A stretch of DNA of 5,956 nt, taken from NCBI GenBank assembly GCA_041486365.1, contig JBGPLH010000212.1, positions 1 through 5,956 on the forward strand, given 5' to 3'. The position numbers and the translations under genes are program-made. The notes beneath the pieces were generated by a model. The model searched no databases. It was given only the letters and a program-made list of their open reading frames with translations, and was not told the DNA's origin. This document shows, piece by piece, positions 272 to 5,956 of this stretch (positions are counted from its first letter, which is position 1; each line of letters starts with the position of its first letter). The stretch comes from JBGPLH01 sp041486365 [NCBI: Thermodesulfobacteriota bacterium] (GTDB lineage: Bacteria > JAUYMQ01).

Positions 272-517
272 TCAGGTCTTGGGCGGGAGAGCCTGCGTCG
301 CGCCCTCCCCGTCGGCCAGTTCCGGGGCCGGCATGGCACGGCGCACCTTCCCCGCCGCGATCTCGCGCAGAGCCGTCACCACTTCCTTGTTGTCCCGCGA
401 CTCGATGAGCGCCGGGGCCCCCTTCATGATCTGCTTCGTGCGCTCCGCCGCCAGGAGGACCAGGTCGAAACGGTTATCGATCCTCACGAGACAGTCCTCG
501 ATGCTGACGCGCGCCAT
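272..517 (-). CDS. rpoZ: DNA-directed RNA polymerase omega subunit
   Basis: An 81-residue protein. Omega is the small RNA polymerase subunit that clamps the beta' C-terminal region and aids enzyme assembly. The family pattern is clear: an N-terminal ARVSIEDCL, then [12 protein letters not shown] (about residues 15-26), then [17 protein letters not shown] (about 42-58), followed by a variable Pro/Ala/Glu-rich tail. The length is normal for bacterial omega. The ATG start is supported by a strong Shine-Dalgarno sequence (GGAGGTG, about 6 bases upstream). The gene lies 84 bp after the protease stop and is followed by a strong terminator. In many bacteria rpoZ sits next to gmk; here its visible upstream neighbour is an HtrA-type protease. 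It may be read through from that gene or from a weak local promoter near 574-579. Confidence 0.96.
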
Positions 518-2057: not shown

Positions 2058-3269
2058 TTAGGCCGTCAATCCCTGAAGGATCCGGCGCGAGATCACGATC
2101 CGCTGGATCTGCCCCGTTCCCTCGAAGATGTCGTACACCTTCACGTCGCGGAAGAGCTTCTCCACCATCCGATGATGGTAGGTCCCCTCGTAGCCCATGA
2201 GCTGAATGGCCTGCGACGTCACCCGCTGCCCCACCTCCGCGGCGTAGGACTTCGCCACCGAGGCCTCCCGGGCGTTCGTGAGATCGAGGTCGCCCATCCA
2301 GGCCGCCTTCCAGCAGAGCAGCCGCGCGGCGTGGATCTCCCGGTCCATGGTCGCCAGCGTGTCGGCGATCACGTGGTAGCGCGGGATCGGGCGCTTCAGA
2401 TCGTAATGCTCCTTCACCCAGTCGCGGGCGATCTCGTAGGCGGCCCGCGCGATCCCCACGGCCATGGCGGCCACGAGGGGCCGGGTGTTGTCGAAGGTCT
2501 TCATCGCCGTGCGGAAGCCCTCCTTGGATGCGGAGGTGTACTGCTTCTCGCCGCCGAGCAGATCGTCGACGTGCACGCGGCAGTCCTCCAGGACCAGCTC
2601 CGCCGTCTCGCTCGCGCGCAGGCCGAGCTTGTCCTCGATCTTCCCCACGGAGAAGCCCGGCGTGCCCTTGAAGACCAGGAACGCGCGGTGCGCGGCGCGG
2701 CCCTGGGTCTTGTCGATCGTGGCGAAGACCACGTTCCAGTCGGCCCGCGCCCCGTTCGTGATGTAGCACTTGCGGCCGTTCAGGACGTAGTGGTTGCCGT
2801 CCTTGCGGCAGGTCGTGGTGATGTTGGCCACGTCGCTCCCCGCCCCCGGCTCCGTGAGCGCGTATGCGCCCCAGTGCGGCGTCTCCGTGTCCGCGAAGAC
2901 CGCGAAGGCGCGATCCTGCTGCTCCTTCGTCCCGGTGAAGCGCACCGGCGGGCCGCCGAGGCCCGGACCGGGGAACGTGAGGATCAGCGCCGGGTCGCCC
3001 CAGGCCAGCTCCTCGGACCCGAGAATGGCGATCCGGTTGGACTGCTTCTCCTTCTTGGTGCTCTCGAGACCCGGGAGATCCGTCTCGCCGAAGTCGCGGG
3101 GCTGCGAGCTGCCGGCCAGGCCCAGCTGCATCGTCTTCTTGAAGAACGGCAGCGGAATTTCCTTGGTCCGGTCGCACTCCAGCGCGATCGGCCGCATCTC
3201 CGTCTCTGCGAACCAGTGCAGCATGGACTTGACGTTCTGCTGCGCATCCGTGAGTTCAAGGTCAATCAT
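2058..3269 (-). CDS. Acyl-CoA dehydrogenase, catalytic-type subunit (ACAD1), FAD-ADP motifs degenerate
   Basis: A 403-residue flavoprotein of the acyl-CoA dehydrogenase family (alpha,beta-oxidation of an acyl-CoA, electrons to ETF). The helical N-domain is about 1-130, the beta domain 133-235 and the C-terminal helical domain 245-400. It looks MCAD-like: TEPGAGSD at 139-146, ITNG at 170-173, FDNTRPLVAA at 259-268 (Thr262 = MCAD Thr255), and catalytic Glu383 in IFEGTGQIQR (= MCAD Glu376). Motifs that bind the ADP half of the partner's FAD are altered. The RxxFG position reads HYDLK (His288, Leu291, Lys292) and the QxxGGxG position reads QLMGYEG (Tyr360, Glu361), although Gln356 is kept. The start at 3269 is chosen for its AGGAG about 6 bases upstream; the ATG at 3296 has no ribosome site. 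It lies 106 bp after ACAD2, its likely partner. The substrate is unknown. Confidence 0.93.
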   Translation of the reverse strand: MIDLELTDAQQNVKSMLHWFAETEMRPIALECDRTKEIPLPFFKKTMQLGLAGSSQPRDFGETDLPGLESTKKEKQSNRIAILGSEELAWGDPALILTFPGPGLGGPPVRFTGTKEQQDRAFAVFADTETPHWGAYALTEPGAGSDVANITTTCRKDGNHYVLNGRKCYITNGARADWNVVFATIDKTQGRAAHRAFLVFKGTPGFSVGKIEDKLGLRASETAELVLEDCRVHVDDLLGGEKQYTSASKEGFRTAMKTFDNTRPLVAAMAVGIARAAYEIARDWVKEHYDLKRPIPRYHVIADTLATMDREIHAARLLCWKAAWMGDLDLTNAREASVAKSYAAEVGQRVTSQAIQLMGYEGTYHHRMVEKLFRDVKVYDIFEGTGQIQRIVISRRILQGLTA

Positions 3270-3330
3270 CGCTCGCTCCTGTGCTCGAAACGTCATTGTC
3301 AGAGTCGGCCCGCGTCTTGATGGGGTCGGC

Positions 3331-3345
3331 CCTCGCTTCGCGAGG
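3331..3345 (-). other. Stem-loop in the ACAD2-ACAD1 spacer
   Basis: CCTCGC-GAA-GCGAGG on the minus strand forms a perfect 6-bp stem with a 3-base loop. The downstream arm GCGAGGG (3336-3330) can instead pair for 7 bp with CCCTCGC (3361-3355) of the upstream repeat copy, so two mutually exclusive hairpins are possible. No U-tract follows. It may tune the ratio of the two subunits or processing between them; this is inference. Confidence 0.4.
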
Positions 3346-3369
3346 AACCTCCGGGCGAGGGACCTCCGG
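3340..3369 (-). repeat. 15-bp tandem repeat (x2, one mismatch) with internal GGAGGT
   Basis: Two adjacent 15-bp units (3355-3369 and 3340-3354) read CCGGAGGTYCCTCGC on the minus strand and differ at one position. They lie just after the ACAD2 stop. Each carries GGAGGT, a near-perfect Shine-Dalgarno core with no start codon at a usable distance, and a CCTCGC arm that can pair with the downstream GCGAGG. Confidence 0.65.
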
Positions 3370-3375
3370 CGGCCT

Positions 3376-4506
3376 TCAGACCGCCATGATGTGCTCGGCG
3401 ACGAGCTGGTTCTGCGCCTGGTCGCTCCCGCACACGAGCGACAGCGTCCGCGCGTCGCGCATCCATTTCTCGCAGGGGTAGTCGCGGATGAACCCGGCGC
3501 CGCCCAGGACCTGGACGGCGTCGATCGTGATCTTCCCGGCCAGGACGTTCGCCTGCACGAGCGCCTGCGCGCACTCCTTGCGCGCGTTCTGGCCCTTGTC
3601 GATCAGCGCAGCGCCGCGCCAGACCAGCACGCGCGCCGCGTCCACGAGGATCGACATGTCGGCCAGCATGAACGCCACGGCCTGGTGGTTCGCGATGGCC
3701 TGGCCGAAGGCCTGTCGCGTGGCCGCGTACTGCAGGGCGTACTCGTAGGCCGCCCGAGCGATCCCCACGGCGCGCGCGGCGTTCACCACCTGAACGCGGG
3801 CCATGAACCGCTCGACGCCCTCGCGGACAGAGGTCGCGCCCGAGAGCAGGTTCGCCTTCGGCACCCGCACGTCCTCGAGCGTGACATCCGCCGTGCACAG
3901 CGCCCAGAGGCCCGATTTTTCGTCAGCGCCGCCGATCGTGAGTCCGACCGCTTCCTTCGGAACCATCACGGCCCGCACCCCTTCCCAGCCCCGCGCCCGA
4001 TCGATCGTCCCGAAGATCACGTACCAGTCGACCAGGCCCGCGTTGGCCACCAGGCACTTGCGGCCGGTGATCCGGACCTGATCGCCGTCCTCGCGGATCG
4101 TCGTCTCGAGGTCCGTGAAGCTCTCGGACTGCCCGGGCTCCCAGAAGCCCGCCGTGCCCGAGCATGCCTCGTTCAGGTACTGCTTCTTCTGGGCGTCGGT
4201 CCCGAGCTCCAGCAGCGCGTAGGCGAGCAGCCCGCCCCGATCGATGGCCGCGGCCATGGCCGCGTCGCCGAAGGCGAGCTCCTCCTCGACCACCACCTTG
4301 GTCATCATGCTGAGGGCGAGCCCGCCGGCATCCTCCGGGAGCTCCAGCGTCGAGAGCCCGAGCTCCCGGTAGCTCTTCACGAGCGACTCGGGGATCGCCC
4401 GCGCTTCCTCCGCCTCGCGCATCTTCGCCCGCAGCTCGGTGTCGGCGAACTTGCGGACCGTGTCCTGGATGGCGAGGACGTCGTCCTCCAGCTTGAATGA
4501 GATCAT
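3376..4506 (-). CDS. Acyl-CoA dehydrogenase-like partner subunit (ACAD2) lacking the catalytic glutamate
   Basis: A 376-residue acyl-CoA dehydrogenase homologue. The N-domain is about 1-115, the beta domain 117-215 and the helical C-domain 225-376. It keeps the motifs that reach across the dimer to hold the ADP part of FAD: RQAFG at 264-268, Gln275 and QVLGGAG at 332-338, then RDA at 350-352. The catalytic position is Cys359 (LVCGSD instead of IYEGT), and the alternative base position used by isovaleryl-CoA dehydrogenase is Val238. The flavin-ring motif reads FWEPGQSES (121-129) instead of LTEPGAGSD, and WITNG is replaced by LVANA (Ala154 for the flavin-contacting Thr). The start at 4506 has a GGAGGAAGG ribosome site 6 bases upstream and overlaps the hydrolase stop by 4 bp (ATGA). 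The frame is open far upstream of this ATG, but only by chance. It is probably inactive alone and the structural partner of ACAD1. Confidence 0.92.
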   Translation of the reverse strand: MISFKLEDDVLAIQDTVRKFADTELRAKMREAEEARAIPESLVKSYRELGLSTLELPEDAGGLALSMMTKVVVEEELAFGDAAMAAAIDRGGLLAYALLELGTDAQKKQYLNEACSGTAGFWEPGQSESFTDLETTIREDGDQVRITGRKCLVANAGLVDWYVIFGTIDRARGWEGVRAVMVPKEAVGLTIGGADEKSGLWALCTADVTLEDVRVPKANLLSGATSVREGVERFMARVQVVNAARAVGIARAAYEYALQYAATRQAFGQAIANHQAVAFMLADMSILVDAARVLVWRGAALIDKGQNARKECAQALVQANVLAGKITIDAVQVLGGAGFIRDYPCEKWMRDARTLSLVCGSDQAQNQLVAEHIMAV

Positions 4507-5609
4507 GAGAGACCTTCCTCCTCTTTCGCCGCGGCGGCGCCCGCCGGGGCTGTTTCGCGAACCCGGAAGTACAGCCGCCCGTCCTCGAAAAGGCGTTCGA
4601 TCTTCCCCTCCTCCTCGAGCACCTCGAGATGGCCCACCACCTCGGAGACCGAGAGGAACAGCTCCATGCGCTCGCGATCGGGGAAGAGCTGGCGGCTCAG
4701 CTCGTATACCGTGGCCTCGCCGCCCAGCAGGGCCCGAAGAATCTTGTGGCTGCGGATCGTGTGGAACCGGTGGAGCTGGTCGATGAGCCGCCGGTGATCG
4801 GAGATCGGATCGTCGTGACCCGGGAGCACCGTGTCGAGATCCATCGCCCGCGTGCGAGCAAGCGACTCGAGGTAATGGACGAGGCTCCGGAACTTCCCTT
4901 CCCAGGGACGCTCCTCGGCCCCCTCCACGCCGAGCTCGAGCACCGGGTTCGGCGAGATCTTCGGCAGGAGGTGATCGCCCGAGAAGAGGATCCGATGTTC
5001 GGGGAGGTGGAAGCAGACGCAGCCGGGCGTGTGCCCGGGGCAGGCGACGACTTCGAGCGAGAAGGGGCCGAGGTCGAATCGATCGCCCTCGTGGAGGATC
5101 TCCACGGAATCCACCGGTTTCTGGACCCGGAGCGCCGTATCGGCGATCTGGTGCATGAAGTCGATGAAGGCCTCCGGCATCCCGAGGATCCGGTAGTACG
5201 CGCCGTAGCGCTCCTGGGCCCAGCGCGCGGCGGCGACGGGGATCTCGGTGATCTTCCGGACGTCCCCCTCGTGGATGTAGACGCGCGCGCCCGAGCGGTT
5301 CTGGATGGCCCGGGCCAGGCCGGCGTGATCGGGATGGCCGTGGGTGATCAGGATGCGCCGGATGTCCTCGACCCGATGGCCCAGCTCCGCCATCCGCGCC
5401 TGGAACGCGCCCCAGGCGGGACGAAACCCCGTTCCGGTGTCGATGACCGTGAGCTCGTCGGCCTCGAGGAGCCAGGCGTTCGCCGTCGGCACCTGGGGGA
5501 ATGGCGTCGGCGTCTCGATCCGCCTGATCCCGAGGCGCTCGAGATCGGCCGGCGTGTGCGTCGCATCGCTCATGGCGCGGTTCATGGGGCGGCTCGTGGG
5601 GCGGCTCAT
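4503..5609 (-). CDS. Metallo-beta-lactamase-fold hydrolase with C-terminal winged helix (LACTB2-like)
   Basis: A 368-residue two-metal hydrolase. Metal ligands are all visible: THGHPDH at 89-95 (His90, His92, Asp94, His95), His193 in CPGHTPG, Asp212 in FSGDH and His265 in LPGHDD. Residues about 285-350 form a winged-helix-like domain as in LACTB2-type proteins, followed by an Ala/Glu-rich tail. At 368 residues it is longer than LACTB2 (about 290). A helical insert at about 115-165 lies between the second and third metal motifs and could shape a substrate pocket. The family covers thioesters, glutathione esters, lactones and RNA. Next to two acyl-CoA dehydrogenases, a CoA-thioester or ring-opening hydrolase is plausible but not shown. 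The start at 5609 overlaps the tetR stop by 4 bp. In-frame ATGs at 5585 and 5573 lie within a 12-bp repeat and lack a clear ribosome site. Confidence 0.92.
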   Translation of the reverse strand: MSRPTSRPMNRAMSDATHTPADLERLGIRRIETPTPFPQVPTANAWLLEADELTVIDTGTGFRPAWGAFQARMAELGHRVEDIRRILITHGHPDHAGLARAIQNRSGARVYIHEGDVRKITEIPVAAARWAQERYGAYYRILGMPEAFIDFMHQIADTALRVQKPVDSVEILHEGDRFDLGPFSLEVVACPGHTPGCVCFHLPEHRILFSGDHLLPKISPNPVLELGVEGAEERPWEGKFRSLVHYLESLARTRAMDLDTVLPGHDDPISDHRRLIDQLHRFHTIRSHKILRALLGGEATVYELSRQLFPDRERMELFLSVSEVVGHLEVLEEEGKIERLFEDGRLYFRVRETAPAGAAAAKEEEGLS

Positions 5610-5618
5610 GGGGCACCC
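5571..5618 (-). repeat. 12-bp degenerate tandem repeat across the hydrolase start codon
   Basis: Four 12-bp units begin at 5571, 5583, 5595 and 5607. On the plus strand they read catggcgcggtt, catggggcggct, cgtggggcggct and catggggcaccc. On the coding strand three of the four units end in ATG, giving start candidates at 5609, 5585 and 5573; the other ends in ACG. The translated N-terminus is a four-residue repeat (MSRP, TSRP, MNRA, MSDA). The hydrolase domain proper begins after residue about 20, so the repeat lies in a dispensable leader that also covers the tetR stop codon. Confidence 0.7.
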
Positions 5619-5956
5619 TGGACGCCGCGGGTCTTGCCCGCCAGCGGGAGCAGCTCGCGCACCATGTGCGGCTCGAGGATCGGCGTCACGAATCCGAGCA
5701 ACGTGCTCTCCTTCCAGGTCTCCTCGCCGCCGACCTGTTTCATGAGGGCGAAGACCTGATAGCAGCCGACGATCAGCCAGGTGATCGCGTCGAGATCGAT
5801 ATCGCGCCGCACCATGCCGCGCTCCTGCCCCAGCTCCAGCGCCCGCCGGATGATGGCGGCGGACCGGCGCAGCGCCTCCGAGAGCGCGTCCCGTACTTCC
5901 TTATCGTCCAGCTCCGACGAGACCTGGAAGATCATCCGCGCCGTGCCGCGGTCCTG
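5606..5956 (-). CDS. TetR-family transcriptional regulator, C-terminal part (cut by window edge)
   Basis: The last 116 residues of a protein whose start lies beyond the window; the frame is open through the edge, so the internal ATG at 5935 is not a real start. The visible part is all-helical and matches the ligand-binding C-terminal domain of TetR-type regulators: DALSEALRRSAAIIRRALELG, then RGMVRRDIDLDAITWLIVG, a typical arrangement in TetR proteins of fatty-acid and xenobiotic catabolism. The N-terminal helix-turn-helix is not in the window, so DNA contacts cannot be judged. The 4-bp overlap with the hydrolase gene implies co-transcription. By analogy with FadR/PsrA/KstR-type regulators it would be a repressor released by an acyl-CoA or related ligand; that is inference. 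Confidence 0.8.
   Translation of the reverse strand, partial: QDRGTARMIFQVSSELDDKEVRDALSEALRRSAAIIRRALELGQERGMVRRDIDLDAITWLIVGCYQVFALMKQVGGEETWKESTLLGFVTPILEPHMVRELLPLAGKTRGVQGAP

What the first reader, a model, noticed from the sequence alone, without database searches (positions are those of the whole stretch)
2058..4506. Two adjacent acyl-CoA dehydrogenases with complementary loss of motifs: predicted obligate heteromer
Seen: ACAD1 has the catalytic Glu383, TEPGAGSD and ITNG but lacks RxxFG and GGxG. ACAD2 has RxxFG, Gln275 and QxxGGxG but lacks the catalytic Glu, TEPGxGSD and ITNG. Known: in MCAD-type enzymes each FAD is held by the flavin-ring motifs of one subunit and by Arg281, Gln349 and Gly353 of its dimer partner. 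Mycobacterial FadE26-FadE27 and FadE28-FadE29 are alpha2beta2 enzymes with half the usual FAD sites. Inferred: this pair forms one live composite site (ACAD1 ring motifs and base with ACAD2 ADP motifs) and one dead site per heterodimer. Which substrate it serves outside the steroid setting is the open question.
Basis: partly seen in the sequence, partly recalled or inferred. Interest (0 to 1): 0.78.

Follow-up and report, generated by a model that had tools for sequence, protein, structure and literature searches.

The report
Two half-enzymes sharing one flavin site
Two neighbouring bacterial genes encode fat-burning enzymes that have each lost a different half of the flavin-binding site, so they almost certainly work only as a pair; the pair belongs to a widespread family that includes the mycobacterial FadE24-FadE23 complex and seems to have arisen independently of the better known steroid-degrading pairs.

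Summary
ACAD1 (alpha, window 2058-3269, - strand) keeps the flavin-ring and catalytic half of an acyl-CoA dehydrogenase site and has lost most of the ADP-binding half; ACAD2 (beta, 3376-4506) is the mirror image. Of 134 loci examined, 129 hold both genes side by side, beta then alpha (in 5 one gene is incomplete), 2 stop at a contig end and 3 lack an adjacent partner. Trees put alpha and beta in two clades that also hold Mycobacteriales FadE24-FadE23-type pairs; the window pair groups with Myxococcota pairs in both. Steroid-type pairs (ChsE4-ChsE5-like) lie elsewhere: AU tests reject one clade for the alphas (p=0.0003) and betas (p=0.0065), and their base sits at 255, not 376. Some relatives sit beside 3-hydroxyacyl-CoA dehydrogenase/enoyl-CoA hydratase or thiolase genes, which points to ordinary beta-oxidation. 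Physical assembly, FAD content and substrate are untested.

The parts
2058..3269 (-). ACAD1 = alpha subunit (403 aa): flavin-ring half (TEPGAGSD, ITNG), T255, catalytic Glu (E383 = MCAD E376); ADP half mostly lost
   Evidence: alpha clade 100/100; mostly 54-60% identical to alphas of one class around G121
3376..4506 (-). ACAD2 = beta subunit (376 aa): ADP half intact (RxxFG, Q275, QxxGGxG); ring half and Glu lost
   Evidence: beta clade 100/98
4503..5609 (-). MBL-fold hydrolase; its stop overlaps the beta start by 4 nt; inferred same operon
   Evidence: homologue (about 26% identity) directly upstream of beta in L129, L130, L138
5606..5956 (-). C-terminal part of a TetR-type regulator, cut by the window edge; overlaps the MBL gene by 4 nt
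   Evidence: PF16925
3270..3375 (-). 106-nt spacer between beta stop and alpha start (79 nt if the upstream ATG at 3296 is used)

Best explanation
ACAD2 (beta) and ACAD1 (alpha) are the two subunits of one heteromeric acyl-CoA dehydrogenase, most likely alpha2beta2. Each alpha-beta dimer makes one working FAD site, with the isoalloxazine, substrate and base (E383) on alpha and the ADP moiety of FAD held by Arg264, Phe267, Gln275, Gln332 and the Gly-Gly motif of beta. The reciprocal site is dead because both of its halves have decayed. The pair descends from duplication of an MCAD-like homo-oligomer followed by complementary loss, independently of the steroid-type pairs. It sits in a TetR-MBL-beta-alpha operon and most likely does the first step of a beta-oxidation cycle controlled by an acyl-CoA-responsive TetR. 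Shown: sequence losses, co-occurrence, gene order, phylogeny. Inferred: duplication of one ancestor (depends on the root), operon, assembly, FAD stoichiometry, activity, substrate, TetR ligand.
For: Motif table and rule: 121 of 126 pairs. Alpha: E376 125/125, S142 126/126, T168 123/126, but R281 5/126, F284 1/125, Q292 1/124, G353 4/125. Beta: R281 126/126, F284 125/126, Q292 126/126, G353 125/125, but T168 2/126, S142 7/124, T136 5/125. Pairing: 129 of 134 loci; 74 of 77 strong beta hits with adjacent alpha in one phylum sample. Alpha clade 100/100, beta clade 100/98, the two together 96/93, largely mirrored topologies. Both models fold as ACADs with pig MCAD 3mdd on top: alpha Z 45.4 (rmsd 3.2, 382 aligned), beta Z 46.0 (rmsd 2.5, 373 aligned). 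Passage in PMC8399759: in ChsE4/5 and ChsE1/2 only one subunit has the Glu, FAD binds at the dimer interface, two sites per alpha2beta2. Operon context: 4-nt overlaps in the window; neighbours of relatives include 3HCDH+ECH proteins downstream (10 of 46 scanned), TetR, thiolase and MBL upstream (7, 5 and 3 of 59 scanned), thiolase upstream in another clade (4 of 44 scanned); fadE24-fadE23-fadB4 cluster in M. tuberculosis (passage).
Against: No physical evidence: complexes could not be co-folded here and both AF2 models rest on 8-row alignments (pLDDT 78.5 and 80.0). No fused beta-alpha ORF in the 72 pairs checked. Window alpha keeps Gln349, so weak FAD binding alone is conceivable. One genome (G086) carries alpha and beta on different contigs (L117, L187), and L185 has an alpha without a recognised beta. 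Among upstream neighbours of the window's own subclade (35 of the 44 genes scanned) no beta-oxidation family recurs in the 25 of 31 families shown. One paper says the FadE23-FadE24 complex has an activity other than acyl-CoA dehydrogenation (PMC11980559 passage). The exact place of window beta has weak SH-aLRT (96/61).
Confidence: 0.83

Rival explanations
1. The pair is a heteromer, but beta is mainly a regulatory or structural subunit and the complex does something other than plain acyl-CoA dehydrogenation (for example nucleotide binding).
For: PMC11980559 (passage) says the FadE23-FadE24 complex has a different activity; PMC12323669 (passage) cites possible ATP binding by FadE23 and FadE24.
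Against: Alpha keeps the whole catalytic set (E376 125/125, S142 126/126); beta's strictest sites include those that hold the ADP part of FAD, which could itself explain binding to nucleotide probes. Beta-oxidation neighbours in some relatives.
Confidence: 0.08
2. Alpha works as an ordinary homo-oligomer with weakened FAD binding; beta is a decaying paralogue kept by chance linkage.
For: Alpha retains Gln349 in the window; beta evolves faster (mean entropy 1.93 against 1.61; end branch 0.75 against 0.36).
Against: A decaying paralogue would not keep R281, Q292 and F296 in 126 of 126 betas nor stay next to alpha across phyla (129 of 134 loci).
Confidence: 0.05
3. The window pair is a separate, third invention of a split ACAD that only falls at the base of the FadE24-FadE23 clades by long-branch attraction.
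For: In the first tree, without close relatives, AU tests were borderline: leaving alpha outside p 0.0535, joining window alpha and beta p 0.038 (the test for beta did not finish); beta has a long branch.
Against: With Myxococcota relatives added, alpha sits in a 100/95 subclade at mostly 54-60% identity and beta in a 100/97 subclade, both with the same partners.
Confidence: 0.04

Closest known systems
FadE24-FadE23 complex of Mycobacteriales (Rv3139-Rv3140 in M. tuberculosis; Tsukamurella L017 and Nocardia L016 pairs used here as its orthologues)
   Same: Same alpha and beta clades, same order (beta then alpha), same complementary losses, base at 376; alpha 40-42% and beta 31% identical
   Different: Separate subclade shared with Myxococcota; window beta has Cys for Glu376 while L016 and L017 betas keep Glu; window alpha keeps Gln349, Glu in L016 and L017 alphas; MBL and TetR neighbours instead of the impC-pflA and fadB4 neighbours described for M. 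tuberculosis
Steroid-type alpha2beta2 ACADs: ChsE4-ChsE5 (4x28), Tcur3481-Tcur3483 (6wy8/6wy9), ChsE1-ChsE2 (the last from papers only)
   Same: Same half-site principle: one subunit keeps ring motifs and base, the other the ADP motifs (passage)
   Different: Different lineage (AU p 0.0003 and 0.0065); base at 255 with Gly at 376 in 8 of 8 such alphas checked
MCAD-type homotetramers (3mdd, 1ukw)
   Same: Fold and base position; best sequence or structure matches
   Different: An MCAD chain carries both halves; here they are split over two chains
PimC-PimD pimeloyl-CoA dehydrogenase
   Same: Two ACAD subunits outside steroid breakdown; a heterotetramer is called possible for relatives (PMC12543098 passage)
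   Different: NCBIfam scores 46-64 bits against cut-offs of 624-653

Membership tests
FadE24-FadE23-type heteromeric ACAD | alpha and beta fall in the two clades that hold the Mycobacteriales pair | tested here: met
   alpha clade 100/100, beta clade 100/98 in the careful tree of 77 rows
FadE24-FadE23-type heteromeric ACAD | adjacent genes, same strand, beta upstream of alpha | tested here: met
   window 4506-2058 on the - strand; same in 129 of 134 loci of the clade
FadE24-FadE23-type heteromeric ACAD | complementary loss with base at MCAD position 376 on alpha | tested here: met
FadE24-FadE23-type heteromeric ACAD | physical alpha2beta2 complex with two FAD | not testable with these tools
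   no co-folding, no biochemistry
Steroid-type alpha2beta2 ACAD (ChsE4-ChsE5 and kin) | catalytic Glu at MCAD position 255 | tested here: not met
   window alpha T255 and E376; 8 of 8 steroid-type alphas E255 and G376
Steroid-type alpha2beta2 ACAD (ChsE4-ChsE5 and kin) | common clade with the steroid-type subunits | tested here: not met
   AU p 0.000277 for alpha, 0.00653 for beta; groups were named after a first tree had been seen
Steroid-type alpha2beta2 ACAD (ChsE4-ChsE5 and kin) | half-site split between two adjacent genes | tested here: met
MCAD-type homotetramer | each chain carries ring, base and ADP motifs | tested here: not met
   neither chain does
PimC-PimD | NCBIfam TIGR03204/TIGR03203 above cut-off | tested here: not met
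   46-64 bits against 624-653

The most novel reading that the evidence does not exclude
Splitting the composite FAD site of an acyl-CoA dehydrogenase over two paralogous chains happened at least twice: once in the steroid lineage (base at 255) and once in an MCAD-like ancestor (base at 376) whose descendants now do ordinary beta-oxidation in Mycobacteriales, Chloroflexota, Myxococcota and the window's organism. The split is then a recurrent outcome of complementary decay of a composite site, not an adaptation to bulky steroid substrates; in some lineages the ring half of beta has gone on to shrink.
Probability: 0.6. Interest if true: 0.6.

Novelty: new member of a known kind. Interest (0 to 1): 0.43.

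Why it matters
Split-site ACADs have been discussed mainly as a device for steroid or polycyclic substrates (recalled from the abstract of Wipperman 2013, which was not held; passages). A second lineage with a different base position, in part tied to beta-oxidation genes and spread over several phyla, makes that explanation testable and gives a natural example of how an obligate heteromer evolves from a homomer. It also suggests a rule for annotators: an ACAD with RxxFG and QxxGGxG but without TEPGxGSD and T168 is probably half an enzyme. The best PDB sequence matches of the Tsukamurella pair are ordinary ACAD entries (best 60 of 109 and of 104 shown), so this lineage seems to have no solved structure.

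Tried and rejected
Genome context of the window: no genome is held, so counts of ACADs in its own genome were impossible and the organism stays unknown. HtrA (P0005) gave 38-48% identity in the 14 genomes tested and does not place it.

One genome-contig scan with beta alone found no close relative, only 6 ACADs at 29-35%, probably because beta evolves fast. Plasmid tblastn gave only matches under 60% identity but led to the Nocardia and Tsukamurella pairs; the Mycolicibacterium hit L018 has both halves and was dropped.

Considered and rejected: that the window pair is steroid-type (base position, AU tests); that E376 loss in beta is the universal mark (34 of 106 betas keep it); fused beta-alpha genes as proof of contact (0 of 72). 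In one search the third AU test did not finish and was not repeated, because that tree was superseded.

Rows dropped or not looked at: 6 loci among the 80 fetched by the beta profile are ACADs with both halves (L135, L139, L141, L142, L146, L147). 11 of the 57 matches and many lower-ranked matches were not fetched; the genome searches scored at most 6 to 8 candidates per genome when sampling a group. The locus tally of 134 leaves out the window, L016 and L017. Neighbour scans used 59 of 62, 46 of 48 and 44 of 46 genes found by a simple caller (very long ones and L096 downstream, L113 upstream were left out); 24 downstream genes of the other clades were not scanned as a set. Structure lists were cut at 50 entries; heteromeric ACAD entries not appearing there says nothing.

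Papers: Wipperman 2013 and Yang 2015 are not held; what I say of Wipperman's abstract is recalled. The library holds open-licence papers only, so absence of a report on independent origins is not shown; searches.
Full report
What is there. The window carries, all on the - strand, the end of a TetR-type regulator (5606-5956), an MBL-fold hydrolase (4503-5609), ACAD2 (3376-4506), ACAD1 (2058-3269), a HtrA-type protease (602-1993) and rpoZ (272-517). TetR/MBL and MBL/ACAD2 overlap by 4 nt each, so TetR-MBL-ACAD2-ACAD1 reads as one operon (inference from the overlaps). I call ACAD1 alpha and ACAD2 beta.

The observation. In pig MCAD numbering (sequence; residues), alpha has T136, G141, S142, D143, T168, T255, E376 and T378, but H281, L284, K285, H292 and Y353. 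Beta has R281, F284, G285, Q292, Q349, G352, G353 and G355, but W136, S141, E142, A168, C376 and S378. Alpha still has Q349. The division of FAD contacts between the two chains of an MCAD dimer is established knowledge (recalled); a passage of PMC8399759 says that in the steroid heteromers FAD binds at the dimer interface and only one subunit has the Glu.

Related pairs. The beta gene alone found no close relative in the one scan of GTDB contigs. tblastn in plasmid records led to Nocardia and Tsukamurella records with two adjacent ACADs. The Tsukamurella pair lies next to hisN; in M. tuberculosis the fadE24-fadE23-fadB4 cluster lies beyond Rv3137 (impC) and pflA (passage of PMC2834668). That hisN and Rv3137 are the same gene is recalled; on this basis I take these as FadE24-FadE23 orthologues. 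From them, the window and two pairs found in the phylum of a Myxococcales MAG I built a beta and an alpha profile.

Pairing. I fetched 140 regions around hits (80; 20; 40). Six of the first 80 hold ACADs with both halves intact and serve as controls. Of the 134 remaining loci, 123 show the beta-alpha pair with the profiles used (70, 16 and 37); in two of these one gene is incomplete (L079 alpha at the contig end, L215 beta). A broader beta profile adds L182, L237 and L238, and L136, L186 and L230 with part of the partner at a contig end, making 129. L104 and L106 stop at the contig end within or after beta. L117 and L187 lack an adjacent partner and come from one genome (G086) that has the two genes on different contigs; L185 has an alpha without a recognised beta. 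Census by coordinates in the 222-genome sample: 74 of 77 strong beta hits have an alpha directly downstream; 74 of 84 strong alpha hits have a listed beta upstream. Of the other ten alphas, six are L175-L180, whose more distant beta is there, one is L186 (partial beta), one is L187 and two were not fetched. In each pair seen the order is beta then alpha.

Complementarity. Over 126 pairs (123 plus the window, Nocardia and Tsukamurella), 121 meet the rule 'alpha has G141, S142, D143 and E376 but lacks R281 or F284; beta has R281, F284 and Q292 and lacks at least three of T136, G141, S142 and T168'. The five exceptions are one truncated alpha (L079), three betas that keep two of the four ring residues (L096, L101, L222) and one beta with Met for F284 (L188). 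Alpha keeps E376 in 125/125; beta keeps it in 34/106 overall and in 0/34 of the 37 pairs of the window's subclade (the window itself has Cys). An all-column comparison without preselection of columns puts the FAD half-sites at both extremes, with the caveat that columns and rows are not independent. Pairs were selected by one subunit's profile, so only the partner's motifs are an independent finding in each set.

Phylogeny. In the careful tree of 77 rows, alphas form one clade (100/100), betas one clade (100/98), and the two together one side of a branch (96/93), next to ordinary MCAD-like enzymes; that they are sisters depends on the root. Window alpha is sister to the Myxococcota alphas (100/95); window beta lies in the matching beta subclade (100/97), its exact place being weaker (96/61). 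In two genomes (G197, G226) I looked at further adjacent ACAD pairs with complementary losses. One of them, L154, was searched in the PDB: its alpha matches 6wy9, 6wy8 and 4x28 best (175-149 bits against 109 for MCAD), its beta 6wy8_A, barely above ordinary ACADs (131.5 against 127.5 bits). I call these pairs steroid-type on that ground and by their clade. Their alphas and betas form their own clades elsewhere. Forcing all alphas together is rejected (p-AU 0.000277), as is forcing all betas (p-AU 0.00653); the groups were named after a first tree had been seen. The alphas differ in chemistry too: E255 with G376 in 8 of 8 steroid-type alphas, T255 or S255 with E376 here. I read this as two origins of the split site, subject to sampling and long branches.

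Structure. AF2 models from shallow alignments (8 rows; pLDDT 78.5 for alpha, 80.0 for beta) are ACAD folds with MCAD on top: 3mdd, Z 45.4 (rmsd 3.2, 382 aligned) and Z 46.0 (rmsd 2.5, 373 aligned). Residues 66-74 of alpha, in an insertion against MCAD, are poorly predicted. Complexes could not be modelled here.

Function. Neighbours give the best lead. Downstream of alpha in the FadE24-FadE23-like set, 10 of 46 scanned genes have 3HCDH plus ECH domains and 11 are zinc-type alcohol dehydrogenases; upstream of beta, 31 of 59 match HxlR, 17 SCP2, 7 TetR, 5 thiolase and 3 MBL. The MBL-beta-alpha order of the window recurs in L129, L130 and L138. Four pairs of another clade (L169-L172) have a thiolase directly upstream. 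Of the 44 upstream genes scanned, 35 belong to the window's own subclade, and no beta-oxidation family recurs among them in the 25 of 31 families shown. So ordinary beta-oxidation is the likeliest role, with unknown substrate. Against this, PMC11980559 (passage) states that the FadE23-FadE24 complex has a different activity, and PMC12323669 (passage) cites possible ATP binding; the intact catalytic residues of the alphas make me doubt the first, and an ADP-binding site could explain the second.

Known or new. The FadE23-FadE24 complex is named in print (passage) and split-site ACADs are known (passages), so the window pair is a new member of a known kind. What I did not find in the searches listed (16, 26, 33, 34, 69, 79, 105, 106; open-licence papers only, seen as listings, with passages of ten papers read) is the statement that the 376-type and 255-type split ACADs arose separately.

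Noticed in passing
L149-L168 (genomes G197, G226): Two genomes with 53 and 39 PF02770 matches hold many further adjacent ACAD pairs with complementary motif loss of the steroid type.
   Followed up: partly
L182-L184, L237, L238: In an outer subclade the beta subunit is shortened and diverged around its middle (flavin-ring) domain, as if that half were dispensable.
   Followed up: partly
L069-L100, upstream of beta: An HxlR-type regulator, in part with an SCP2 domain, often lies directly upstream of beta in FadE24-FadE23-like pairs (31 of 59 scanned upstream genes match HxlR).
   Followed up: partly
window P0001 residues 60-80: Alpha carries an insertion between N-terminal helices compared with MCAD, longer still in the Nocardia and Tsukamurella alphas; low pLDDT in the window model.
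   Followed up: no
L117 and L187 (genome G086): The only genome seen with alpha and beta on different contigs away from contig ends; real separation or assembly fault not settled.
   Followed up: partly
window 272-517 and 602-1993: rpoZ and a HtrA-type protease lie downstream on the same strand; HtrA similarity does not reveal the organism.
   Followed up: partly
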